34,687 nt of DNA from Acidithrix ferrooxidans (GTDB lineage Bacteria > Actinomycetota > Acidimicrobiia > Acidimicrobiales > Acidimicrobiaceae). How positions within the stretch are numbered: position 1 is the stretch's first letter; every line of letters starts with the position of its first letter. The DNA is taken from contig NZ_JXYS01000017.1 in assembly GCF_000949295.1 (NCBI RefSeq), positions 1-34,687 of the forward strand, in the 5' to 3' direction. A program made the translations under genes and the position numbers. This document shows positions 2,006 to 29,295 of the stretch, one piece after another. The notes beneath the pieces are model-generated. The model had not been told where the DNA came from, ran no database searches, and saw only the letters and a program-made list of their open reading frames with translations.

Positions 2006-3259
2006 TCAAACTGGAAAAGGCAGTCCTGGATGACATCTAGAAAACTCCGCAGCGACCTCTCGCTTCAATTCAAGAAATGGCTTGTCCAAGATCAAAGCAA
2101 GCGAATACAGATCGTCCGCTTCAATCTTGGAGGCAAAGGGTCCTACCTTTATCGATATCAACCTTCCATATAGCTCCACCTGCATAAAGGATCTTGCCAA
2201 GACCTCTCGATCTACCATAGAACGCCTAATCCCTAAAGTCCCTAACGAGGCAAAGATCTCTCTGGAGAACCTATCCGCCTCATCAACCTTACAGATCAGG
2301 CTAAATAACGAGCCAGAACGAGCCTTTTTCGCAACTATCGGACTAACCCACGCATCAATCGCGCCCTTTGCGATAAGCAATTCAACAACTGAAGCCAAAG
2401 TCTCAGGGCTTTGATCGTCGATATTAGTCTCAAGCAGGCTGGCAACTTCAAAGCTAGAAGGATAGTCATGCGAACCATCCCCCTTGGCCTTAGAGCCGCT
2501 GACGGCAATTTCTTGGCCATAGGAGTATCTCTGGCCAGGGGTAGTGGCCTCTCCAAGGGCCCCCACTACCATATTGGGACGATCTTCCAGGTGAATCGTC
2601 CCACTTCCATATCCGATTTTTTGCGCCCTAAAGGCCATCTTTGGCCATGGCTCAGATGCAAATACGGATAATAGAGCGGCTCCGGTCGGGGTCAAAAGTT
2701 CATTTCCTCTCACCGCTTGAGTGAAGGAAAAGCGTGAAATAAGTTCCAGAGTGGCTGGTGATGGCAGATTTAGCACCCCATGAGAGGTGGCAACTAGCCC
2801 TCCCCCTACTTCGAGGTCAGAGACTATTACCCCCTCCACCTCAAAGTACTCGAGTGCGATCACTCCCACCAAAAGATCAACAATTGTATCCCAAGCACCG
2901 ATCTCATGAAAGACGACCTCTTCGAGCGCAACTCCGTGCAATTTCGCCTCAACTTCACCAAGGCGAATAATGGCTTTTGAGAATCCTTCGATAACCCCAA
3001 GAGATAGACCGCTTTGTTGAACCAATTTGAGGATATCATCCAAGGCTCTTGGAGGTTGCACCGTTTGGGCCACTACCGAAAACGAGGTAGTTGAAAAGTC
3101 ACCCTTCTTTACCTTTTTAACGATGATCTCAACACCCGCCAACCCCAAGGCGCCAATAGCGTCATTGACGATCTTTGGTTCCAAACCAAGGTCAAAGCAG
3201 AGGGCACCGAACATATCTCCAGAAAGTCCCGACGGACACCACAACCGAAGGGCCTTCAA
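2006..3259 (-). CDS. larC: Nickel-pincer cofactor biosynthesis protein LarC
   Basis: A 417-residue LarC (old name DUF111). LarC uses CTP to insert nickel into the pyridinium dithiocarboxylate mononucleotide, the last step in making the nickel-pincer nucleotide of lactate racemase-type enzymes. The start LWCPSGLSGDMFGALCFDLG matches the LarC N-terminus. The central VVFHEIGAWDTIVDLLVG, HGVLNLPSPATLELI and ELLTPTGAALL blocks are LarC1 landmarks. LLETNIDDQSPETLASV, then AIDAWVSPIVAKKARSGS, mark LarC2. In the well-studied Lactobacillus case the two halves are joined by a programmed frameshift; here they are one uninterrupted frame. The usual MKKGRPG segment reads AKKARSG, a mild divergence. It overlaps larB by 4 bp, so the two are probably translationally coupled. 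Confidence 0.92.
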   Translation of the reverse strand: MKALRLWCPSGLSGDMFGALCFDLGLEPKIVNDAIGALGLAGVEIIVKKVKKGDFSTTSFSVVAQTVQPPRALDDILKLVQQSGLSLGVIEGFSKAIIRLGEVEAKLHGVALEEVVFHEIGAWDTIVDLLVGVIALEYFEVEGVIVSDLEVGGGLVATSHGVLNLPSPATLELISRFSFTQAVRGNELLTPTGAALLSVFASEPWPKMAFRAQKIGYGSGTIHLEDRPNMVVGALGEATTPGQRYSYGQEIAVSGSKAKGDGSHDYPSSFEVASLLETNIDDQSPETLASVVELLIAKGAIDAWVSPIVAKKARSGSLFSLICKVDEADRFSREIFASLGTLGIRRSMVDREVLARSFMQVELYGRLISIKVGPFASKIEADDLYSLALILDKPFLELKREVAAEFSRCHPGLPFPV

Positions 3260-3984
3260 TTTTGATGCTCCGCAACTGTTGGTACCTCTTGGGGCTCTTG
3301 GTGTTTAGCTGACAACAAATTGATTATTCGAATCGCGCCACAGGCAGCGCCAAAGCCATTGTCAACACCCACTACACTCACACCAGGAGCACATGAGGCC
3401 AACATCGCCATCATTGCCGTTTGGCCACCCTGAGAGGCTCCATAGCCAGTAGAGGTGGGAACCGCGATAATCGGATTAGAGATCAACCCACCCAAAACCG
3501 AGGTAATAGCACCTTCCATGCCCGCCACCACGATCACTACATCAAATTTTCTAATCTGATCGATCTTAGAAAGTAACCGGTGAATACCCGCCACACCAAC
3601 ATCACAGATCAGATCAAAACCGATTCCACACGCGCTAAGCGTACCGGCCGCTTCATTCGCCACCACAAGATCGGTCGTCCCGGCCGTCACGATTCCAACC
3701 TTCTCGGGCCGATTATCATTAGCTGCAATTACAACGGTCGCTAGAGCATCTGGAAACTGATCTCGTCCCGGATAGACCATAGCACCAGGAAAGGCTCGAA
3801 GAAGGCTAGCGACCGCCGCCGAATTTGCTCTAGTAACTAGAACCGGTCCTTGTCCTTGTGCGTCCATCTCCATGGCCAGCTGAACTATTTGATTTTCGGT
3901 CTTACCTGGGCCATAGATCGCCTCAGGGAGGCCAATTCGGGGAAACCTGCCATGATCAACTTCTGCAAAATCACCTGTCGACAT
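3256..3984 (-). CDS. larB: Pyridinium-3,5-biscarboxylate mononucleotide synthase LarB
   Basis: A 242-residue LarB, related to PurE (AIR carboxylase). It carboxylates and hydrolyses nicotinate adenine dinucleotide in the first step of nickel-pincer nucleotide synthesis. The protein begins with RFPRIGLPEAIYGPGKT, followed by the PurE-like core: VGIVTAGTTDLVVANEAA, CDVGVAGIHRLL, VVAGMEGAITSVLGGL, IAVPTSTGYGAS and SCAPGVSVVGVDNGFGAA. Cys198 in the SCAPG segment sits where LarB proteins carry the nucleophilic cysteine. An AGGAAA ribosome binding site lies 5 bp before the ATG. It is the first gene of the unit and runs into larC with a 4-bp overlap. LarE, the sulfur donor, and LarA are not encoded in this window. 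The family assignment is secure. Confidence 0.93.
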   Translation of the reverse strand: MSTGDFAEVDHGRFPRIGLPEAIYGPGKTENQIVQLAMEMDAQGQGPVLVTRANSAAVASLLRAFPGAMVYPGRDQFPDALATVVIAANDNRPEKVGIVTAGTTDLVVANEAAGTLSACGIGFDLICDVGVAGIHRLLSKIDQIRKFDVVIVVAGMEGAITSVLGGLISNPIIAVPTSTGYGASQGGQTAMMAMLASCAPGVSVVGVDNGFGAACGAIRIINLLSAKHQEPQEVPTVAEHQN

Positions 3985-4566
3985 TATTTCCTAACTTGGA
4001 TAAAATTTCGAATTATCGATAGAGCCAACACGCTGTCTAACTATCTCAATCATGCTATGCGAATTAGCAAATTGAACGTGAACCTCCCCGCCCTTACGGA
4101 AGGGGATTGCGCTCCCGTTGGTTCAAAATGGATCTAAATCCGTCACTTACAAGATACGTCACTGCGCTCGCAATGCTTCACGTGGCCACAAAAGACCAAA
4201 ACCAACAAAAAGATAGATCTTGGAGCCTAACCATATCAACCTCGCCCCTGGGTGAAAAGGACCGACCACATCTAACTTAGGGCTCAAATCACCCCTATAG
4301 CAAAAACCATCCGTTATCTCATTGCGCCGATTGACTCCACTGCTATTGCCTTGGTTACGACGCGTGGTTGTGGCGCGTGGTTGTGGCGCGTGGTTGTGGC
4401 GCGTGGTTGTGGCGCGTGGTTGTGGCGCGTGGTTGTGGTTCACAGCGCCATTGATTAGATTTCACCTGTGCTAAGCCAAGATCTCCTTATCGAACTGGAC
4501 CGACGTAACAACTATTGCTCTGAGAAAGAACGTGCCTATCGATGGTCACTAGGGTAAATTAGATCT
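3985..4566. other. Gene-free divergent region between larB and pheA
   Basis: This 582-bp stretch separates larB (minus) from pheA (plus), so it should hold both promoters, but no confident -35/-10 pair was recognised. The only obvious structure is the 13-bp tandem repeat at 4361-4438. Open frames across the repeat are repetitive and of low complexity and do not look like a gene. Confidence 0.7.
4361..4438. repeat. Six perfect tandem copies of a 13-bp unit
   Basis: The unit CGCGTGGTTGTGG is repeated six times with no mismatch (78 bp), about 130 bp upstream of pheA. Because 13 is not a multiple of three, the repeat cannot be kept in one peptide frame, so it is unlikely to be coding. There are no spacers, so it is not a CRISPR. 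The plus strand is G/T rich and carries no long stem. It is a minisatellite-like tract, prone to copy-number change. Confidence 0.95.
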
Positions 4567-8831: not shown

Positions 8832-8879
8832 GCCTGGATCCACCGAAAATTTAGCCGCTCAACTTTGATTTTGGCATAG

Positions 8880-8950
8880 AAAAGGTGCTCTGAACATGTT
8901 GAATGATGTTTAAAGACAATTCAAATCTATCAGTTCAAGGAGCACCTTTT
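8880..8950 (+). promoter_or_regulatory. Leader hairpin pairing the transposase ribosome binding site (IS copy 1)
   Basis: AAAAGGTGCTC at 8880-8890 is the exact complement of GAGCACCTTTT at 8940-8950, and TGAAC at 8891-8895 pairs with GTTCA at 8933-8937, leaving a two-base bulge. The right arm contains AAGGAG (8937-8942), the likely Shine-Dalgarno sequence 10 bp before the ATG at 8953. Transcripts starting upstream of the IS would fold this stem and hide the ribosome binding site, a known way for insertion sequences to stay quiet. The function is inference; the pairing is seen. Confidence 0.7.
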
Positions 8951-8952
8951 AG

Positions 8953-10059
8953 ATGCGAGCATCTGCTAGTGCTTTAGAGTGTTTGATAGTCACCTTTGAC
9001 GATTCGAACGCAGTTTCCAACAGTGGGTTAATACTTCCTATCACCCTTGCTGAGAGACTTGGCCTTAGGGATCTCTTTGATTCTCACATTGACCTAGAGG
9101 ATCGTCCTGGACGAGCAAATGCTGGCAGAAGAGCTATGGCTATCATTGCATCTATCTTGGCCGGTGGTGATTGCGTTAATGACACTGCAATCCTTGAAAG
9201 CCCAAATGCGCAAGTGATTCTTGGTCAGATAATGCCAGCACCATCCACTCTTGGTGTCTTCTTGCGTAGTTTTGAGACCAGTGACATCGCAGATGTTGAA
9301 CGAGTTGCAGCTTTGTTGCTAAAACGAGCCTGGCTAGCTGGAGCAGGTCCAGGTGATGAGTCACTCACCATTGATGTTGATTCCACGATATGTCAGGTAT
9401 ATGGAAACAAAAAAGAAGGAGCTGGATTTGGTTATACCAAAGTAAGGGGGTATCACCCACACCTAGCAGCTGTTGGTAAAACAGGTGACATTCTTGGAAT
9501 AGTGACACGTGAAGGCAATGCCAATACCGCCCGTGGTGCCGGAGAGTTTGTAACTCAGGTAATCAACAATGCGAGAGCCGCTGGAGCAACTGGTGAAATA
9601 ACCATGCGTTTTGACTCTGGGTTCTACTCAAGAGCCGTTAGAGACGCAGCTAGTGCGGGTGATGTTCGCATTTGCATTACAACACGGATGTCAAAACGAT
9701 TGAAGCAGGTTATTGCAGCCATACCAGAAGAAACATGGACTTCAATTCCTTATTGGCTTGAAGGTGGAGCTGATGTAGCAGAAGTGAAATATCGCGCATT
9801 TGCAAGAGATAGACAAGACGTTCGTCTTATCGTACGAAGGGTCAAGCCTACTCCAGGGTCTCAGCTGGCACTATTTAGTGACTATGACTATCACGCATTT
9901 ATTACCGATCGACAAGGCGAAACGCTTTTCCTTGAGGCTGATCACCGAGCACATGCCCAGATCGAACTAGTCATCAAGGATCTCAAAGGAGGTTCGGGAT
10001 GGAATCATGTTCCATCCAGATGCATGAACGCTAATGCCGTTTGGTTGGCTCTGGTCTAA
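8953..10059 (+). CDS. IS1380-family transposase (C-terminus cut by TAA)
   Basis: A 368-residue DDE transposase. The catalytic D is in LTIDVDSTICQVYGNKK, the second D in TMRFDSGFYSRAV and the E in HAQIELVIKDLKGGSGWN. An N-terminal part with NSGLILPITLAERLGL is typical of the family. The frame stops at TAA 10057-10059, just after NAVWLALV, where relatives continue with an AIAHNLAR-type segment and a basic C-terminal tail. That tail is still present downstream in the same frame (10144-10356), so full translation through the single TAA would give 467 residues, close to the family length once the extra repeat units are discounted. The same TAA occurs in the second copy. Whether the short protein is active is unknown. 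Confidence 0.9.
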   Translation: MRASASALECLIVTFDDSNAVSNSGLILPITLAERLGLRDLFDSHIDLEDRPGRANAGRRAMAIIASILAGGDCVNDTAILESPNAQVILGQIMPAPSTLGVFLRSFETSDIADVERVAALLLKRAWLAGAGPGDESLTIDVDSTICQVYGNKKEGAGFGYTKVRGYHPHLAAVGKTGDILGIVTREGNANTARGAGEFVTQVINNARAAGATGEITMRFDSGFYSRAVRDAASAGDVRICITTRMSKRLKQVIAAIPEETWTSIPYWLEGGADVAEVKYRAFARDRQDVRLIVRRVKPTPGSQLALFSDYDYHAFITDRQGETLFLEADHRAHAQIELVIKDLKGGSGWNHVPSRCMNANAVWLALV

Positions 10060-10068
10060 TTAGCCATT

Positions 10069-10168
10069 GGTGCAATTGCACACAACCTGGCACGGTGCAA
10101 CTGCACACAACCTGGCACGGTGCAATTGCACACAACCTGGCACGGTGCAACTGCACACAACCGGGCAC
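10069..10168 (+). repeat. Four tandem 25-bp units at the transposase 3' end
   Basis: Units at 10069-10093, 10094-10118, 10119-10143 and 10144-10168 follow GGTGCA(A/C)TTGCAC-type sequence, alternating between GTGCAATTGCAC, a perfect palindrome, and GTGCAACTGCAC. One unit corresponds to the conserved transposase segment GAIAHNLA. A 25-bp unit shifts the frame by one per copy, so only 1, 4 or 7 units keep the tail in frame; this copy has four and keeps it. The second IS copy has two. Confidence 0.92.
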
Positions 10169-10356
10169 AAATAGGTGCTATTGCAGAAACTGTAATAACC
10201 ACACCAAAGCTTCGACGGTGTTACTTTCAGATCGCAGGACATATCACTCGCTCAGCTAGAAAAGTAATACTCCATCTTGAAGAACACTGGCACTATAAGG
10301 ATAAGTTCTTAGAGGCTCTTGATCGGATCAGAAAGTTTGAGATCGCCATCACCTGA
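10144..10356 (+). pseudogene. Detached C-terminal tail of the IS1380 transposase
   Basis: These 70 codons read GATAHNRAQIGAIAET, then VITTPKLRRCYFQIAGHITR and SARKVILHLEEHW, ending in TGA. The basic PKLRR...ITRSARK region matches the tail expected of IS1380 transposases. It is in the same frame as the main transposase gene, separated from it only by the TAA at 10057-10059 and three extra repeat units. There is no convincing independent ribosome binding site. Expression would need stop readthrough or internal initiation. Confidence 0.7.
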
Positions 10357-10691
10357 ACATCTGGTTACCTAACACACTGAATATTACTTGAAACAACTGC
10401 TCTAGAAGACAAGGGATTAGGTCACTATGGCCAAAATGAGATTTCAGAATCTCAAAAATGACCAAAAAGGCTCAATCACAAAGGGAATAGGTCATATTTG
10501 GCACTCTGAAACCAGTTACGAGTCATAGACCCTCCGTCAAACCTAAATCAGTTCCCAAAAACCGACTTGGATTCACACCGAAGGGCTCAAGCTGGTCCAT
10601 TTCTATGAATTCAGGTTAAATCCAACGTGACCGTCGATAAGAGCCTTCATCCTTCTTTTTTCGCAAAAAGTGAAGCCACTCTCGGTTCCAT

Positions 10692-10736
10692 GTGACGGCG
10701 ACTCTCGGTTCCCTTGGAACCGAGAGTCGCCGTCAC
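10692..10736. repeat. Perfect 21-bp inverted repeat with 3-nt loop
   Basis: 10692-10712 is the exact reverse complement of 10716-10736, separated only by CTT. The arm core is ACTCTCGGTTCC, and a degenerate direct copy of the same core lies just upstream at about 10677-10689. There is no T-run on either side, so it is not a typical terminator. It looks like a repetitive extragenic palindrome, a miniature element, or two abutted transposon ends. Confidence 0.9.
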
Positions 10737-10801: not shown

Positions 10802-10882
10802 CCCTTTTATGGTGTCATGCTCTTGGATATAGTTGAGGACCATCTGCTCCTGCTGAAAAGGGTTGAACTTGGATTGGCGGAT
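10802..10882 (-). pseudogene. Relic fragment of a paralogue of the split regulator gene
   Basis: About 80 bp nearly identical to 11156-11238, inside the 3' part of the regulator gene. On the minus strand it still reads RQSKFNPFQQEQMVLNYIQ followed by EHDTIKG, against RQAKFNPFQQEQMVLNYIQ then KHGSIKR in the intact copy. Nothing before or after it matches, so it is a broken remnant of a second copy or a local segmental duplication about 355 bp away in the same orientation. Confidence 0.75.
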
Positions 10883-11027: not shown

Positions 11028-12257
11028 TTAATGCCCTAGCTCATAAAAAGTCCCTTTTCGAAGGCCGATTTGAACAATCCTATCCTGCTTCTTCAGGCGC
11101 GAAAGAAGTTTATAGGCTTGGTCCTGGTTGAGATAACACAAGTCCATAACATCCGCCCGTTTTATGCTGCCATGCTTTTGGATATAGTTGAGGACCATCT
11201 GCTCCTGCTGAAAAGGGTTGAACTTGGCTTGGCGGATATATTCCGACTTCTTACTTCCTTTGGAGTACAGGCCTGCGCTAAGGCCAAAGGTCTGACCCCG
11301 GCCGGTACCATAGGATTGCAGAAAACCGACTTCGACCAATTTATGTAGTGTTGCACGCACGCTGGCCACCGGTTTTTGGACAGATGGGACGAGATCGCCG
11401 GTGGCAAGATGGCCCTCTTTGCTAAGGCGCGATAAGATGATGAGCGAGTCAATAGGCATGTTTCCCAGCTTTTTCTCTTGATCAATCACCATCTTGAAGA
11501 AATTGAGATCGGCGGCCGAGTTGACCAACTGCAGAGAAACCGTAAATTCGTTAGACATAGAATAATCGGGTGCGCCTCTACCGTAGCGGAGCATTCCTTC
11601 ATATATACGGTCAATGCCCCGCCCGGTGCGTTCCGCCAAACCAATCCGCTTAATCACGTCAGCAAGCAATGGATTGCGGCAACGAGGATCGGCAACGAGC
11701 AGATTGTCCGAGTTAACACCTTCGACAAATCCCCCGGGGCTGCTTATTGAGAGCCCTTCTTCCGTGATCTTGACATGCACTGCGCCCAAGCGGCTGAAGT
11801 CACGGTGAACCAAGGCATTGACGAATGCCTCTCGAAAAGCACGACGGTCATAATTGGGAACAGGCACTCTGAAAAGTCCGACATCAATTTCTTCTTCCTC
11901 GACTCGGGCCTCGAAATGGAGCTCTACTGCCTCGAAAGTCTCCAGAAGTGGTTTGCGGAAGAACTCGTTCACTCTTACATCCGTACCATTCAGCACCTGA
12001 AAGGCAACCTCAAAGGCCGGCAGATTGGCCCGCAGGAGTTCTTCAGTCCCTAGCAACAACAAACCAGCTATGGTTGGTCGCCGTCCGCCTTTCGTCTCCC
12101 GACAAAGCCCAAGTGCACCATCTAGCTCGTTATCCGCCAGTGCCAATAAGGACTGATCACCCCCGTATTTTTTAATAGCTTCGCGAATGCGCCGGCGTTG
12201 CAACGAATCGAGGTCACCTACCTCTATTGCCTCCAGTACCAAGGCTGAAGGATCCAC
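11028..12257 (-). CDS. GHKL-ATPase and winged-helix part of a split AlbA_2-type regulator
   Basis: 409 residues from a GTG at 12257, representing the middle and end of the protein type called 'ATP-binding protein / RecG C-terminal-like transcriptional regulator'. Its ATPase block is visible: YDRRAFREAFVNALVHRDF (N box), then VKITEEGLSISSPGGFVEG and GLAERTGRGIDRIYEGM. Two winged-helix regions follow, LSRLSKEGHLATGDLVPSV and MVLNYIQKHGSIKRADVMD. The N-terminal AlbA_2 DNA-binding domain is encoded immediately upstream in the same frame (12273-12698), separated by one TAA and five codons. Together they would make about 556 residues, a normal length. The GTG lacks a ribosome binding site, which favours a nonsense-mutated gene over two designed subunits. 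Such proteins often sit in mobile or defence-associated regions. Confidence 0.75.
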   Translation of the reverse strand: MDPSALVLEAIEVGDLDSLQRRRIREAIKKYGGDQSLLALADNELDGALGLCRETKGGRRPTIAGLLLLGTEELLRANLPAFEVAFQVLNGTDVRVNEFFRKPLLETFEAVELHFEARVEEEEIDVGLFRVPVPNYDRRAFREAFVNALVHRDFSRLGAVHVKITEEGLSISSPGGFVEGVNSDNLLVADPRCRNPLLADVIKRIGLAERTGRGIDRIYEGMLRYGRGAPDYSMSNEFTVSLQLVNSAADLNFFKMVIDQEKKLGNMPIDSLIILSRLSKEGHLATGDLVPSVQKPVASVRATLHKLVEVGFLQSYGTGRGQTFGLSAGLYSKGSKKSEYIRQAKFNPFQQEQMVLNYIQKHGSIKRADVMDLCYLNQDQAYKLLSRLKKQDRIVQIGLRKGTFYELGH

Positions 12258-12272
12258 AAGGCTAATTGAGGA

Positions 12273-12698
12273 TTAGTGCCCGATAAATTCATGAGGGTAG
12301 AATGGCACTGCTTCAGGCGTTCCATCAAGTTTCAATCGTCTCCTGACAACAAGACCATCGGATGTCGCTACCAAATCTCGTGATTTGGCAACGAAAATAC
12401 GCGCGACGGACCCTTGCTGAAGGTCGTATCGCTCGACTCTCACAGATACGGCTGGGTTGGTTTTGTTAGCGATTAGAGACGGCATACTCGAAACATCTAG
12501 ATGCTTACAGTTCAGCCCCGTAACAGTGCCGTCATCCTCCACGCCAAGCAACAAATCGCCACCATTCGTATTGGCCAACGAAACCACCGCCGTCACCAGC
12601 TCGCGATCCGAGTAGCCTTTCACATCGCTCTTGAACTCCAACGAAAGATTTTCGCCTTGCTGAACCAGTTTCGTGACTTCCCGTTCGCTCGTGTTCAT
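12273..12698 (-). CDS. AlbA_2 (schlafen-like) DNA-binding domain part of the split regulator
   Basis: A 141-residue protein with the AlbA_2/divergent AAA-4 domain: QQGENLSLEFKSDVKGYSDR, then LVTAVVSLANTNGGDLLLGV, EDDGTVTGL and VRVERYDLQQGSVARIFV. This domain binds nucleic acid and is normally the N-terminal part of a longer regulator with a GHKL ATPase domain. The protein ends HEFIGH at TAA 12273-12275, and the next codons continue in the same frame into the ATPase part. The ATG overlaps the stop of a 30-codon upstream frame (ATGA), suggesting coupling. By itself it would be a truncated DNA-binding module, possibly able to repress or interfere. Confidence 0.78.
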   Translation of the reverse strand: MNTSEREVTKLVQQGENLSLEFKSDVKGYSDRELVTAVVSLANTNGGDLLLGVEDDGTVTGLNCKHLDVSSMPSLIANKTNPAVSVRVERYDLQQGSVARIFVAKSRDLVATSDGLVVRRRLKLDGTPEAVPFYPHEFIGH

Positions 12699-13007: not shown

Positions 13008-13055
13008 ACCTGGATCCACCGAAAATTTAGCCGATCGACTTTGATTTTAACATCT

Positions 13056-13126
13056 AAAAGGTGCTCTGAACTGGTAGAATGATGTTTGAATACAATTCAA
13101 ATCCATCAGTTCAAGGAGCACCTTTT
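13056..13126 (+). promoter_or_regulatory. Leader hairpin pairing the transposase ribosome binding site (IS copy 2)
   Basis: AAAAGGTGCTC at 13056-13066 pairs with GAGCACCTTTT at 13116-13126, as in copy 1. The loop differs in sequence and length between copies while both arms are identical, which suggests the stem is under selection or was so until recently. Confidence 0.65.
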
Positions 13127-13128
13127 AG

Positions 13129-14270
13129 ATGCGAGCATCTACTAGTGCTTTAGAGTGTTTGATAGTCACCTTTGACGATTCGAACGCAGTTTCCAACAGT
13201 GGGTTAATACTCCCTATCACCCTTGCTGAGAGACTTGGCCTTAGGGATCTCTTTGATTTACACATTGACCTAGAGGATCGTCCTGGACGAGCAAATGTTG
13301 GCAGAAGAGCTATGGCTATCATTGCATCTATCTTGCATCGCATCTATTTTGGCCGGTGGTGATTGCATTGATGACACTGCAATCCTTGAAAGCCCAAATG
13401 CGCAAGTGATTCTTGGTCAGATAATGCCAGCACCATCTAGGTTTGGTGTCTTCTTGCGTAGTTTTGAGACCAGTGACATCGCAGATGTTGAACGAGTTGC
13501 AGCTTTGTTGCTAAAACGAGCCTGGCTAGCTGGAGCAGGTCCAGGTGATGAGTCACTCACCATTGATGTTGATTCCACAATATGTCAGGTATATGGAAAC
13601 AAAAAAGAAGGAGCTGGATTTGGTTATACCAACCTAAGGGGGTATCACCCACACCTAGCAGCTGTTGGTAAAACAGGTGACATTCTTGGAATAGTGACAC
13701 GTGAAGGCAATGCCAATACCTCTCGTGGTGCCGGAGAATTTGTAACTCAGGTAATCAACAATGCCAGAGCCGCTGGAGCAACTGGTGAAATAACCATGCG
13801 TTTTGACTCTGGGTTCTTCTCAAGAGCCGTTAGAGACGCAGCTAGTGCGGGTGATGTTCGCATTTGCATTACAACACGGATGTCAAAACGATTGAAGCAG
13901 GTTATTGCAGCCATACCAGAAGAAACATGGACTTCAATTCCTTATTGGCTTGAAGGTGGAGCTGATGTAGCAGAAGTGAAATACCGTCAAAAACAGTAAA
14001 TATTGCGCATTTGCAAGAGATAGACAGGACGTTCGTCTTATCGTACGAAAGGTCATGCCTGCTCCCGGGTCTCAGCTGGCACTATTTAGTGACTATGACT
14101 ATCACGCATTTATTACCGATCGACAAGGCGAAACGCTCTTTCTTGAGGCTGACCACCGAGCACATGCCCAGATCGAACTAGTCATCAAGGATCTCAAAGG
14201 AGGTTCGGGGTGGAATCATGTTCCATCCAGATACATGAACGCTAATGCCGTTTGGTTGGCTCTGGTCTAA
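13129..14270 (+). pseudogene. Broken IS1380-family transposase
   Basis: Homologous throughout to the transposase of copy 1 but in three pieces. A 16-bp insertion at 13335-13350, containing an imperfect copy of the neighbouring GCATCTAT, shifts the frame. A 19-bp insertion at 13983-14001 adds an in-frame TAA at 13997-13999 and shifts the frame again. The remaining part ends at the same TAA (14268-14270) as copy 1. The catalytic D, D and E segments survive in separate fragments. A functional product is not expected. Confidence 0.92.
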
Positions 14271-14279
14271 TTAGCCATT

Positions 14280-14329
14280 TGTGCAATTGCACACAACCTG
14301 GCACGGTGCAACTGCACACAACCGGGCAC
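14280..14329 (+). repeat. Two tandem 25-bp units at the broken transposase 3' end
   Basis: Units at 14280-14304 and 14305-14329 match the first and last units of the four-unit array in copy 1. With two units the C-terminal tail is out of frame with the transposase body, unlike in copy 1. Confidence 0.9.
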
Positions 14330-14517
14330 AAATAGGTGCTATTGCAGAAACTGTTATCACCACACCAAAGCTTCGACGGTGTTACTTTCAGATCGCAGGA
14401 CATATCACTCGTTCAGCTAGAAAAGTAATACTCCATCTTGAAGAACACTGGCACTATAAGGATAAGTTCTTAGAAGCTCTTGATCGGATCAGAAAGTTTG
14501 AGATCGCCATCACCTGA
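14305..14517 (+). pseudogene. Detached transposase C-terminal tail (IS copy 2)
   Basis: The same 70-codon tail as in copy 1, ending in TGA at 14515-14517. It is preserved almost without change, though the repeat number puts it out of frame and the body is broken. Its conservation probably reflects recent common origin rather than function. Confidence 0.7.
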
Positions 14518-14776
14518 ACATCTGGTTACCTAACACACTGAATATTACTTGAAGGAACTGCTCTAGAAGACAAGGGATTAGGTCACTATGGCCAAAATGA
14601 GATTTCAGAATCTCAAAAATGACCAAAAATGCTCAATCACAAAGCGAATGGGTCATATTTGGCACTCTGAAACCAGTTACGAGTCATAGACCCTCCGTCA
14701 AACCTAAATCAGTTCCGAAAAACCGACTTGGATTCACACCGAAGGGCTCAAGCTGGTCCATTTCTGTGGATTCGGG

Positions 14777-15328
14777 CTAAGGGGTTGTTATCGGCGTTCC
14801 ATTAGCCGAGACAACGTACCATGTTCCTCCAAAAGCAACGACTCCTTGGCCGTTGGTTGCCCCTGGAGAGGTATCGCCTGCAAACCGATATAGCGGATGG
14901 CCACCATAGACAACCTGGGAAGAGTCGTTGCTTTCCTTTAAAAAGGAAACCTTGGTCTTATTAAGACCCACACCTACTACTAAATGCACTGAAGATACTG
15001 CTGGCCAAGCGCTCAAACAGGCCGAAGAGGTACAGGTGGCCTTGGTGGCAGAATCAGGAGTAAACATATAGAGAGTCTGCCCGCTAGATAGTGCCAAGAT
15101 CGACCCGTACTTAGAAGATTCGGTCGTCAACTTGACCCCTGAGCCCAATGACCCAGAAGAGGCCTCCGTAGTAGATGGAGTCGCTCCATATGCTGAATAT
15201 GCACTAGTAGATGGCGAAGACGAAGCGACCGACGAACCGGTAGCACTGCTAGAAGAGGACCCACAAGAGGCGGCTACTAAAGCTACACTCGAGAGGGCTC
15301 CGATGGAAAATAGACGGCGACTTTTCAT
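14777..15328 (-). CDS. Secreted lipoprotein of the COG4315 / Lipoprotein_15 type
   Basis: A 183-residue lipoprotein. The N-terminus MKSRRLFSIGALSSVALVAA has a basic start and hydrophobic core, followed by the lipobox around AASC with Cys22 as lipid anchor. A Ser/Thr/Ala-rich linker (about residues 23-62) leads to the conserved 'secreted repeat' domain: KYGSILALSSGQTLYMFTPD, CTSSACLSAWPAV, VVYGGHPLYRFAGD and GQGVVAFGGTWYVVSANG. The function of this domain is unknown. GGAGGT lies 7 bp before the ATG, a strong ribosome binding site. A 14-bp inverted repeat sits just upstream. IS copy 2 is inserted at its stop codon. It faces the cell exterior, anchored in the cytoplasmic membrane. Confidence 0.88.
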   Translation of the reverse strand: MKSRRLFSIGALSSVALVAASCGSSSSSATGSSVASSSPSTSAYSAYGATPSTTEASSGSLGSGVKLTTESSKYGSILALSSGQTLYMFTPDSATKATCTSSACLSAWPAVSSVHLVVGVGLNKTKVSFLKESNDSSQVVYGGHPLYRFAGDTSPGATNGQGVVAFGGTWYVVSANGTPITTP

Positions 15329-26810: not shown

Positions 26811-28081
26811 CCTCCTCCGCTAACCAATGTCGGAGTAGTTGAGGAAAGAGTTGAAGTCGTGGCGGAATAACTCCTAACCTGGGAGGTCAAATTACTGATA
26901 TAGTTTCGCGCAGCCGAGAGAGAGGTCTCTGCCACACCGGCCTTTATTTGGACTACATACGAATTGGGCAAGGCGTTCAGTTTGATCTTTTCAACCTCAA
27001 CCACCTTTGGCTTGAACCACAAAATTCCCCCGGGACGACCTTGATAGATCACAACATTAGAGGTATTGGAAGCACCGACAAAATAACTTCCGTTCACATA
27101 GGAGTTGATGCCATAGGCTCCAACCCCCAGAATGACCAAAAGTAGGATTAAAAAAGCAGCAATCCTAAGGTACATCCCAGATTTATGAAACTCCGACTTA
27201 GATATCGGAATTGGGATAGATTGCAACATTGGACCACGAAGAGATGCGTCCTCGCCTTCGATCTTTACCACATGAGGAGCAAAACGTATCAGCGGCGAAG
27301 CGGCCACTCCTTGACTGTGAGTCTCTAGATCGCGAATCGACTCGTCGCCAATTGGTGCCAACGCAACAACGACAGCGGAGGCGTTATCTACGCCCCCAGC
27401 CAAAACAGCTGCCTCGACAACCTTAGATGCTCCGTCTTGAGCGGATTTGGATCTACGCAAAATTTCTGCGATCTCCAAATCACCTAACTCATTGGTCACC
27501 CCATCCGAACACAAAATAACCTGGTCTCCTGGGTCTAGATGTATCTCCCAGAGATCTGGCCCAACGGTCTCATCTACCCCCACGACCTTAGTCAAGACGT
27601 GACGCGACCTCGAGTGGGCGACTTCATCCTCGCTCATTCGACCGGCACGCATCATCTCTTCAACCCAAGAGTGATCCACGGTCAACTGAGTTATTTCACC
27701 TTTTCTCAAGAGATAGGCCCGCGAGTCGCCAACATTTAGCAGATATGCCTTGCGGGGACTCTTTTCCCCTTGGATTTCCTCCAAGACGAGGCTAACGAAA
27801 GTTGTGCCCATGCCATGGAGGTCGGGGTTGGCCATACCCATCGTAAAAACCATCTCATTTGCATAAAAGAGAGCGCTCTGGATTGCGTCAGAGTCCAGTT
27901 CACTTTGGTTCACTCTCTCAGTAAAGGCGTCGACTGCTATTCGGGCTGCGGTCTCGCCACCATTGGCTCCACCCATACCATCGGCCACTATAAAGATCGA
28001 ACCATCAGCAAAGACATGGTCCTGGTTGTCTCGTCTGACTTTTCCAGTGTTGGTAGCACTACCCCAATCCACAAGGGCCAT
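26807..28081 (-). CDS. pstP: PP2C-family Ser/Thr phosphatase (PstP)
   Basis: A 424-residue membrane phosphatase that reverses PknB-type phosphorylation. The PP2C domain (about 1-235) shows the metal-binding motifs RRDNQDHVF, FIVADGMGGANGG, GMGTTFVSLVL, LLNVGDSRAYLL, ILCSDGVTNEL and GGVDNASAVVVA. A linker leads to one membrane helix (YLRIAAFLILLLVILGVGAY) and an extracellular tail of about 95 residues ending in a Ser/Thr-rich segment. The gene overlaps fhaB by 1 bp (TGATG) and pbpA by 4 bp, so coupling along the operon is strong. All metal ligands appear intact. Confidence 0.94.
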   Translation of the reverse strand: MALVDWGSATNTGKVRRDNQDHVFADGSIFIVADGMGGANGGETAARIAVDAFTERVNQSELDSDAIQSALFYANEMVFTMGMANPDLHGMGTTFVSLVLEEIQGEKSPRKAYLLNVGDSRAYLLRKGEITQLTVDHSWVEEMMRAGRMSEDEVAHSRSRHVLTKVVGVDETVGPDLWEIHLDPGDQVILCSDGVTNELGDLEIAEILRRSKSAQDGASKVVEAAVLAGGVDNASAVVVALAPIGDESIRDLETHSQGVAASPLIRFAPHVVKIEGEDASLRGPMLQSIPIPISKSEFHKSGMYLRIAAFLILLLVILGVGAYGINSYVNGSYFVGASNTSNVVIYQGRPGGILWFKPKVVEVEKIKLNALPNSYVVQIKAGVAETSLSAARNYISNLTSQVRSYSATTSTLSSTTPTLVSGGG

Positions 28082-28614
28082 CAGATCACTTCCATGCTAG
28101 AGTGACCAATCGAGATTCGATCTCCCTTGGAAAGGGGCCTTGGAGTGTTGATCCGACCGGAGTTTACAAAGGTACCATTGGTTGAACCCAAATCCTCGAC
28201 ATAGAGGACGTCGTTGTCTACCCACATTCGAGCGTGCACAGACGAACCAAATTCATCGTCCCCCAAAGAGATCGTGCATCCACTGGAACGACCAATTGTC
28301 GTCAATCCGTTGATATCGAAGATAAGATCTTCCCCAACACCGTCTCTTTTAAACTTCACTTGAAATCCGCTTTTTGCTTGTGACCTTCGTTTTGATCCAG
28401 ATCTTCCCGATGAAGACGAAGTTACAGTTTTCTTAGCTTGATTGGTCTCACCACCGCCTTGTGATAAAACTTCAAATTCGCTCTGTGACTTCTCCTTCCT
28501 TTGTAGATCATTTGTTCTGATTTGAACCCAAACCGCCCTTATAACTCTTAGAAAAAAGAGCCATATAAGGGCAATTAAAACATACTTAAATAGATCCAGC
28601 AGCCCTATCGGCAT
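28081..28614 (-). CDS. fhaB: Membrane-anchored FHA-domain protein (FhaB/FipA type)
   Basis: 177 residues: an N-terminal membrane helix (YVLIALIWLFFLRVIRAVW), a basic Ser/Lys-rich linker (about 35-85) and a C-terminal FHA domain. FHA landmarks are LTTIGRSSGC, SSVHARMWV and DLGSTNGTFVN, the phosphothreonine-binding surface. FHA proteins here read phosphorylation by PknB and connect it to the division machinery. The gene starts 3 bp after fhaA and overlaps pstP by 1 bp. The ribosome binding site is poor, consistent with coupling to fhaA translation. Confidence 0.9.
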   Translation of the reverse strand: MPIGLLDLFKYVLIALIWLFFLRVIRAVWVQIRTNDLQRKEKSQSEFEVLSQGGGETNQAKKTVTSSSSGRSGSKRRSQAKSGFQVKFKRDGVGEDLIFDINGLTTIGRSSGCTISLGDDEFGSSVHARMWVDNDVLYVEDLGSTNGTFVNSGRINTPRPLSKGDRISIGHSSMEVI

Positions 28615-28617
28615 AGG

Positions 28618-29295
28618 TTATTGACGTCCAATTTTAATTCGAACCACTCCGAACTCTATAACATCCCCATCATCTACGGATATCTGGGAAATTCGCCGTC
28701 CATTAACTTTAGTACCATTTGTCGATTCGAGATCTCTAAGCGTCACTACCCCATCCTTATTCAGGGATATCTCCGCATGATTTCGAGATATCTTAGGATC
28801 ATCGATTACTACCGCACAAGAAGGAAGACGCCCTACGGTGATAGTTTTTTCCGTGATCGGCACCCTAAGTCCGTTGGGCATTTCAAGATATAAGTGACCT
28901 AAATAATCTGGATCTTCTATGTATCTTGACTCAATTGCAAATGTACCCCGAGGAAGGTCTTCGTCAATTTCAATTCTCAATGCCGGGAAACCGACGAACT
29001 TATATCTATGTTCTTTAGCAGTCTGTTGAACCAGTGCAAGCAATTCGGAGTTGAGAGCAGTCGCGATATCGGAGAGGCTATGCCAATCCGAAGAACTCAA
29101 CGCAACTAAATAATCATTTGGAACAAGGGGTCCGCGCACGCCAATGCGCTTTTCGAGTTCCATATGGCGCGAAAGCTTCTTGCCAATCTCAGATGGTTGG
29201 ATGCCCTTTCGTGAAAAGCGTCCAAAGGCCCCTTCCACTAAATGTTCGAGCCTATTTTCAATATCGTTTAGCCCCACGGCTATATGATAGTTCAT
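28618..29295 (-). CDS. fhaA: FhaA-type protein (DUF3662 plus FHA domain)
   Basis: 225 residues. The N-terminal DUF3662 region reads DIENRLEHLVEGAFGRFSRK, then GIQPSEIGKKLSRHMELEKR, the part that contacts membrane-linked partners in homologues. A C-terminal FHA domain has ITVGRLPSCAVVIDD, ISRNHAEISL and DLESTNGTKVNGRRI. The mycobacterial protein has a long disordered linker between these domains; here it is very short, so this is a compact version. In mycobacteria FhaA binds phosphorylated MviN/MurJ and restrains wall synthesis. It is the first gene of the operon. The ATG at 29295 lacks a good ribosome binding site, and a GTG at 29277 is an alternative. Confidence 0.9.
   Translation of the reverse strand: MNYHIAVGLNDIENRLEHLVEGAFGRFSRKGIQPSEIGKKLSRHMELEKRIGVRGPLVPNDYLVALSSSDWHSLSDIATALNSELLALVQQTAKEHRYKFVGFPALRIEIDEDLPRGTFAIESRYIEDPDYLGHLYLEMPNGLRVPITEKTITVGRLPSCAVVIDDPKISRNHAEISLNKDGVVTLRDLESTNGTKVNGRRISQISVDDGDVIEFGVVRIKIGRQ

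What the first reader, a model, noticed from the sequence alone, without database searches (positions are those of the whole stretch)
11028..12698. AlbA_2/GHKL regulator split by a single in-frame TAA
The two parts lie in one frame, separated by TAA (12273-12275) and five codons before a GTG that lacks a ribosome binding site. Both halves keep all recognisable motifs. It could be a recent nonsense mutation, a recoded stop, or a sequence error.
Basis: partly seen in the sequence, partly recalled or inferred. Interest (0 to 1): 0.5.

Follow-up and report, generated by a model that had tools for sequence, protein, structure and literature searches.

The report
Broken, orphaned phage-defence helper gene
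A gene that in other bacteria sits inside an anti-phage defence operon stands alone in this genome and is cut in two by a single stop codon, so it is most likely an ordinary dying gene rather than a recoded one.

Summary
In detail: on the minus strand a 141-codon ORF (12698-12273) ends in TAA, and 414 codons in the same frame stay open to 11028. All 23 close homologues found (64-76% identical) read through that column as one gene, each with glutamine there, so these are not two natural genes. No stop-decoding tRNA was found and TAA ends other genes here, so recoding is unlikely. Sequence error is unlikely if the genome is Acidithrix ferrooxidans Py-F3 (size and contig count match); no reads were seen.

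All 23 close homologues lie directly behind a BrxC match, and 20 of 23 have a PglX match downstream: it is the Schlafen (AlbA_2)-GHKL-wHTH accessory of BREX phage defence, an association already in print. In this genome BrxC and PglZ gave no match, PglX none above cut-off, and the gene lies alone between two IS1380 copies that inserted independently. Best reading: a horizontally acquired BREX accessory, stranded without its operon and recently inactivated by a nonsense mutation. A working split protein is not excluded. Interest is modest.

The parts
12273..12698 (-). ORF1: Schlafen/AlbA_2 domain, 141 codons ATG to TAA
   Evidence: Pfam SLFN_AlbA_2 E 4.5e-16; the only PF04326 match in the genome at E <= 0.001
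12273..12275 (-). in-frame TAA; the column is glutamine in 23 of 23 close homologues
11028..12272 (-). rest of the gene in the same frame: linker, HATPase_c_4 (GHKL) domain, probable winged-helix C terminus; first start GTG at 12257
   Evidence: HATPase_c_4 E 1.6e-16, DIP2311-like_C below its cut-off
10802..10882 (-). relic: 81-nt copy of the 3' coding part (matches 11157-11237, 94%)
8832..10615 (+). IS1380-family insertion sequence, copy 1, TTAA on both sides (edges to within a base or so)
   Evidence: edges read from the sequence
13008..14776 (+). IS1380-family insertion sequence, copy 2, CTAA on both sides (edges to within a base or so); transposase frame disrupted
   Evidence: edges read from the sequence

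Best explanation
This is a pseudogene, or one in the making: a horizontally acquired copy of the BREX-associated Schlafen-GHKL-wHTH accessory gene, now stranded without the BREX core genes and broken by one nonsense mutation at a position that is glutamine in every close homologue found. In intact form the protein probably senses infection through its GHKL/wHTH part and unleashes the Schlafen domain as an RNA (tRNA) nuclease, as a backup to BREX (inferred from the literature, not shown here). In the window, translation would end after the AlbA_2 domain, uncoupling nuclease from sensor; the C part is probably hardly made. Shown: single in-frame lesion, uninterrupted homologues, BREX neighbourhood of homologues, no BrxC or PglZ match in this genome, flanking IS copies. 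Inferred: loss of function, transfer, order of events, mechanism of the intact protein.
For: 23 of 23 close homologues read through the junction with Gln at the TAA column; no gap column against the nearest one, L026. All 23 have a BrxC match upstream and 20 a PglX match downstream; in L027 these neighbours score 767 and 1074 bits on NCBIfam BREX_BrxC and BREX_1_MTaseX, cut-offs 400 and 500. Own genome: no BrxC match, no PglZ match, PglX only two matches far below cut-off. In the other genomes of the relatives search (60 with the own) and of the class sample (296 with the own; the sets overlap) the best identity is 39%, against 76% in a Desulfobulbaceae genome, which points to transfer. No tRNA with a stop anticodon. 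Window N part: 16 of 81 private changes at invariant columns against 22 of 236 in the C part, Fisher p 0.017; the window's terminal branch is 0.30 of the N tree and 0.20 of the C tree. Relic copies at 10802-10882 and on contig C82 show decay of this sequence in the genome.
Against: Apart from the one stop the frame is intact over 1,671 nt. A simulation of random substitutions gives a 7% chance of no further stop after 5% neutral divergence and 58% after 1%, so the break must be young or the parts still under some constraint. Third-position excess is kept in both parts, though that mostly reflects the time before the break. The C part is well conserved (75% to L026). The excess of changes in the N part could come from faster lineage evolution or recombination. 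No second strain of the species was available, expression was not tested, and the genome is a draft (183 contigs, about 98% complete), so a missing BREX gene is not strictly excluded.
Confidence: 0.83

Rival explanations
1. A working two-polypeptide version: ORF1 makes a free Schlafen domain and the GHKL-wHTH part is made by reinitiation at the GTG 15 nt after the TAA or at a later start, and the two act as a pair or the C part acts alone.
For: The stop falls after the AlbA_2 domain, both domains stay intact, and the C part is open for 414 codons. Two Marinobacter loci (L029, L043) have lost most of the AlbA_2 domain in frame and keep the rest between BrxC and PglX matches, so the C part may be useful without it; the two are 439 of 458 residues identical, so this may be one event. 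An internal TTG at 12203 has AGGTGA 10 nt upstream.
Against: No ribosome site before the GTG; 23 of 23 close homologues are not split; no BrxC or PglZ match in the genome; the residues next to the stop and the N part have diverged more than the C part.
Confidence: 0.09
2. Sequence or assembly error: the gene is intact in the organism.
For: Only one lesion; draft genome of 183 contigs.
Against: No gap is involved, and the stretch 11928-12698 is found only once in the genome, so repeat collapse is not the cause; the published assembly that matches in size and contig count combined 203-fold Illumina and 18.4-fold 454 reads. The two residues before the stop also differ from all 23 close homologues, so the spot is divergent anyway.
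Confidence: 0.06
3. Recoded or read-through stop: TAA is decoded as an amino acid here.
For: One frame, conserved on both sides.
Against: No tRNA with an anticodon for TAA, TAG or TGA in ARAGORN calls that cover 46 of 48 Rfam tRNA matches; 2 gave no call, and 150 of 213 first-look candidates were scored. TAA ends 8 of 24 ORFs examined, HisS among them; the 23 homologues have no stop there.
Confidence: 0.02

Closest known systems
[quoted passage not shown] passages and section 35 part 1 of 2 read)
   Same: Same domain order; all 23 close homologues lie behind a BrxC match
   Different: The window copy is interrupted, has no BREX gene beside it, and the genome gave no BrxC or PglZ match. Whether the survey counted these homologues was not checked
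3lmm, uncharacterised protein of solved structure
   Same: Profile match E 1.3e-19, best stretch positions 249-553, that is HATPase and C-terminal part
   Different: The AlbA_2 part is matched only insignificantly; its gene neighbourhood was not examined
Ordinary nonsense pseudogenes stranded among insertion sequences (general knowledge)
   Same: One in-frame stop, orphan gene, IS copies on both sides, partial relics
   Different: Nothing of substance

Membership tests
BREX-linked Schlafen-GHKL-wHTH proteins | N-terminal SLFN_AlbA_2 domain | tested here: met
   Pfam PF04326 59.9 bits, cut-off 25.3; E16, E21 and D55, invariant in the 8 rows aligned, are kept; their role as catalytic residues is recalled from Schlafen work, not tested
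BREX-linked Schlafen-GHKL-wHTH proteins | HATPase_c_4 (GHKL) domain | tested here: met
   60.5 bits, cut-off 26
BREX-linked Schlafen-GHKL-wHTH proteins | C-terminal winged helix | tested here: inconclusive
   Only DIP2311-like_C, 21.2 bits against a cut-off of 27; an intact homologue shows sub-cut-off ArsR- and Csa3-type HTH matches
BREX-linked Schlafen-GHKL-wHTH proteins | one continuous polypeptide | tested here: not met
   TAA at 12273-12275
BREX-linked Schlafen-GHKL-wHTH proteins | location in a BREX locus | tested here: not met
   Flanked by IS1380 copies; no BrxC or PglZ match in the genome. Met by homologues: BrxC match 23 of 23, PglX match 20 of 23
Functional BREX system in this genome | BrxC and PglZ present | tested here: not met
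   No match at E <= 0.001; each family rang in 2 of 14 control genomes; draft genome
Stop-codon recoding | a tRNA reading the stop | tested here: not met
   2 of 48 Rfam tRNA matches gave no ARAGORN call
Composite transposon carrying the gene | matching target duplications at the outer ends | tested here: not met
   Copy 1 has TTAA on both sides and copy 2 CTAA on both sides, so each inserted on its own (sequences printed)

The most novel reading that the evidence does not exclude
The break is tolerated or selected because it uncouples a self-harmful Schlafen nuclease from its sensor once the BREX core is gone, leaving a free GHKL-wHTH regulator made by reinitiation. The AlbA_2-less forms in two Marinobacter BREX loci would be a parallel case of nuclease loss with the regulator kept.
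Probability: 0.08. Interest if true: 0.45.

Novelty: new member of a known kind. Interest (0 to 1): 0.2.

Why it matters
It settles an apparent 'recoded stop' as most likely ordinary gene death and gives the gene a proper identity. It also shows a BREX accessory effector surviving, for a while, outside its operon in what is probably an actinobacterium. That bears on whether such backup nucleases act alone or become useless, or costly, without BREX.

Tried and rejected
Two separate genes: rejected, 23 of 23 close homologues are uninterrupted at the junction. Recoding: see rivals. Composite transposon: rejected by the target duplications. BrxC remnant upstream: a 30-codon ORF whose TGA overlaps the start of ORF1 was compared with 8 BrxC C termini; shuffles reaching the score ranged from 5 to 413 of 500, so it is not convincing.

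Other BREX pieces in the flanks: 201 six-frame ORFs of the 23 homologous loci were searched against four flanking stretches. The only clear match was the 81-nt relic of this gene; the rest were short matches of E 0.002 to 0.01, from reverse-frame ORFs or unidentified, and were taken as chance. Viral contigs: no relative for either part. Plasmids (96 records) and phages (24 records): matches to the C part, all below 60% identity; one plasmid neighbourhood looked at (Miltoncostaea, 12 features) names no BREX gene. The 1.5-kb flanks of the more distant unnamed relatives gave no BrxC or PglX match at E 1e-8, so the BREX link is shown for the close homologues only.

Structure prediction of the intact homologue L026 with 12 rows was poor (mean pLDDT 53, pTM 0.31) and was not used; no fold search was run. 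PADLOC matches the C part to two pAgo-associated models (Aga_SIR2 types, best E 2.2e-15); I take this as shared sequence around the GHKL region rather than membership, and did not follow it. L049 (25% identical, archaeal) was left out of the junction counts. Synteny of the HisS region in the genus was searched but not evaluated. Paper searches added nothing used beyond PMC12839542.

Full report
Observation. On the minus strand, 12698-12273 is a 141-codon ORF ending in TAA; the same frame then stays open for 414 codons to TAA at 11028-11030, with GTG at 12257 as the first start. Such an open frame is not chance (about 2e-9 from base composition alone). ORF1 carries SLFN_AlbA_2 and the rest HATPase_c_4. 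It is the only SLFN_AlbA_2 match in the genome.

One gene, one lesion. A scan of the genome collection gave 24 loci: 23 close ones at 64-76% identity (best segment) and one distant archaeal one (25%), which was dropped. Of the 23, 20 are single frames of full length, two (L029, L043, Marinobacter) lack most of the AlbA_2 domain in frame, and one (L048) is cut by its contig end. All 23 cover the junction, and all have glutamine in the TAA column; the two residues before it also differ between the window and all 23. Against the nearest, L026, there is no gap column. Among the more distant relatives in other genomes, 15 of the 21 loci listed lie in open frames of 554-649 aa; I did not read the junction residue there.

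What the gene is. In 23 of 23 close homologues the stretch just upstream matches BrxC. In 20 of 23 a PglX match lies downstream: within about 0.3 kb of the gene in 11, and starting about 1.7-1.8 kb further on in 9, where the stretch between was not examined. It is missing in L033 (full flank held), L042 and L048 (short flanks). For L027 the neighbours pass the NCBIfam cut-offs of BREX_BrxC and BREX_1_MTaseX. A 2026 survey of BREX (PMC12839542; [quoted passage not shown] The domain order and setting of the homologues fit this. The association is therefore known; the tRNA-cleaving role is stated there with reference to other work and was not tested here.

The window copy is an orphan. The genome has no BrxC match, no PglZ match, and only two PglX matches far below cut-off (perhaps other methyltransferases, not followed). 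It is a draft, about 98% complete. The gene lies between two IS1380 copies, 8832-10615 and 13008-14776. The first has TTAA on both sides and the second CTAA on both sides, so each came on its own. The element has many copies and fragments in the genome (38 matches including the window's own). An 81-nt relic of the gene's 3' part lies at 10802-10882 (94%), and a more decayed one on contig C82. In other genomes of its class sample the best relative is 39% identical, against 76% in a Desulfobulbaceae genome, so transfer from afar is likely. A short upstream ORF was tested as a BrxC remnant without a clear result.

Age of the break. At columns invariant in 7 other representatives the window differs at 16 of 81 in the N part and 22 of 236 in the C part (Fisher p 0.017). 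The other seven, counted the same way, lie at 0-6% in both parts, L044 highest; the window is the most diverged row, which by itself raises its count. In trees of 12 sequences the window's terminal branch is 0.30 of the N tree and 0.20 of the C tree; for L026, L041, L046 and L044 the fractions are 0.07/0.06, 0.06/0.08, 0.05/0.06 and 0.11/0.19. This fits relaxed constraint on the N part, but faster lineage evolution or recombination could give the same, and private changes also cluster towards the end of the C part. The absence of further stops makes long neutral decay unlikely: 7% chance at 5% divergence.

Recoding and error. Rfam finds 48 tRNA matches, with 150 of 213 first-look candidates scored. 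ARAGORN calls cover 46 of them, with none reading a stop; two matches gave no call. TAA ends 8 of 24 window ORFs examined, a set that includes the C part itself and the IS1380 ORF. Size (4,019,867 bases) and contig number (183) agree with the published draft of Acidithrix ferrooxidans Py-F3, which reports 4.02 Mb, 183 contigs, 46 tRNA genes, and 454 and Illumina reads at 18.4- and 203-fold coverage (PMC4417699, whole text read); the identity of the genome is inferred from this agreement. Reads were not available.

Verdict. Most likely an ordinary nonsense-broken gene, with a more interesting identity than first thought: an orphaned BREX accessory effector.

Noticed in passing
L029 and L043, about 2853-4227: Two Marinobacter BREX loci keep the GHKL-wHTH part in frame but lack most of the Schlafen domain, while BrxC and PglX matches stay in place; the two are near-identical, so perhaps one event.
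   Followed up: partly
window 10044-10170 and 14255-14330: The IS1380 transposase frame seems to end early (TAA at 10057-10059, 98 open codons follow) and a 25-nt unit is repeated in tandem in its 3' part, in different numbers in the two copies.
   Followed up: partly
window 14777-14780: IS1380 copy 2 sits at the very end of the ORF 14777-15328 (lipoprotein-like by eye, name from no call); its CTAA duplication overlaps that ORF's stop codon.
   Followed up: no
window 28081-29295: Two neighbouring ORFs (FHA-like by eye, name from no call) lie in one frame with TAA at 28618-28620 between them, so an in-frame stop alone does not show a broken gene.
   Followed up: no
window 10675-10736: A perfect 21-nt inverted repeat with 3 nt between the arms (10692-10736) and a further partial copy beside it.
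   Followed up: no
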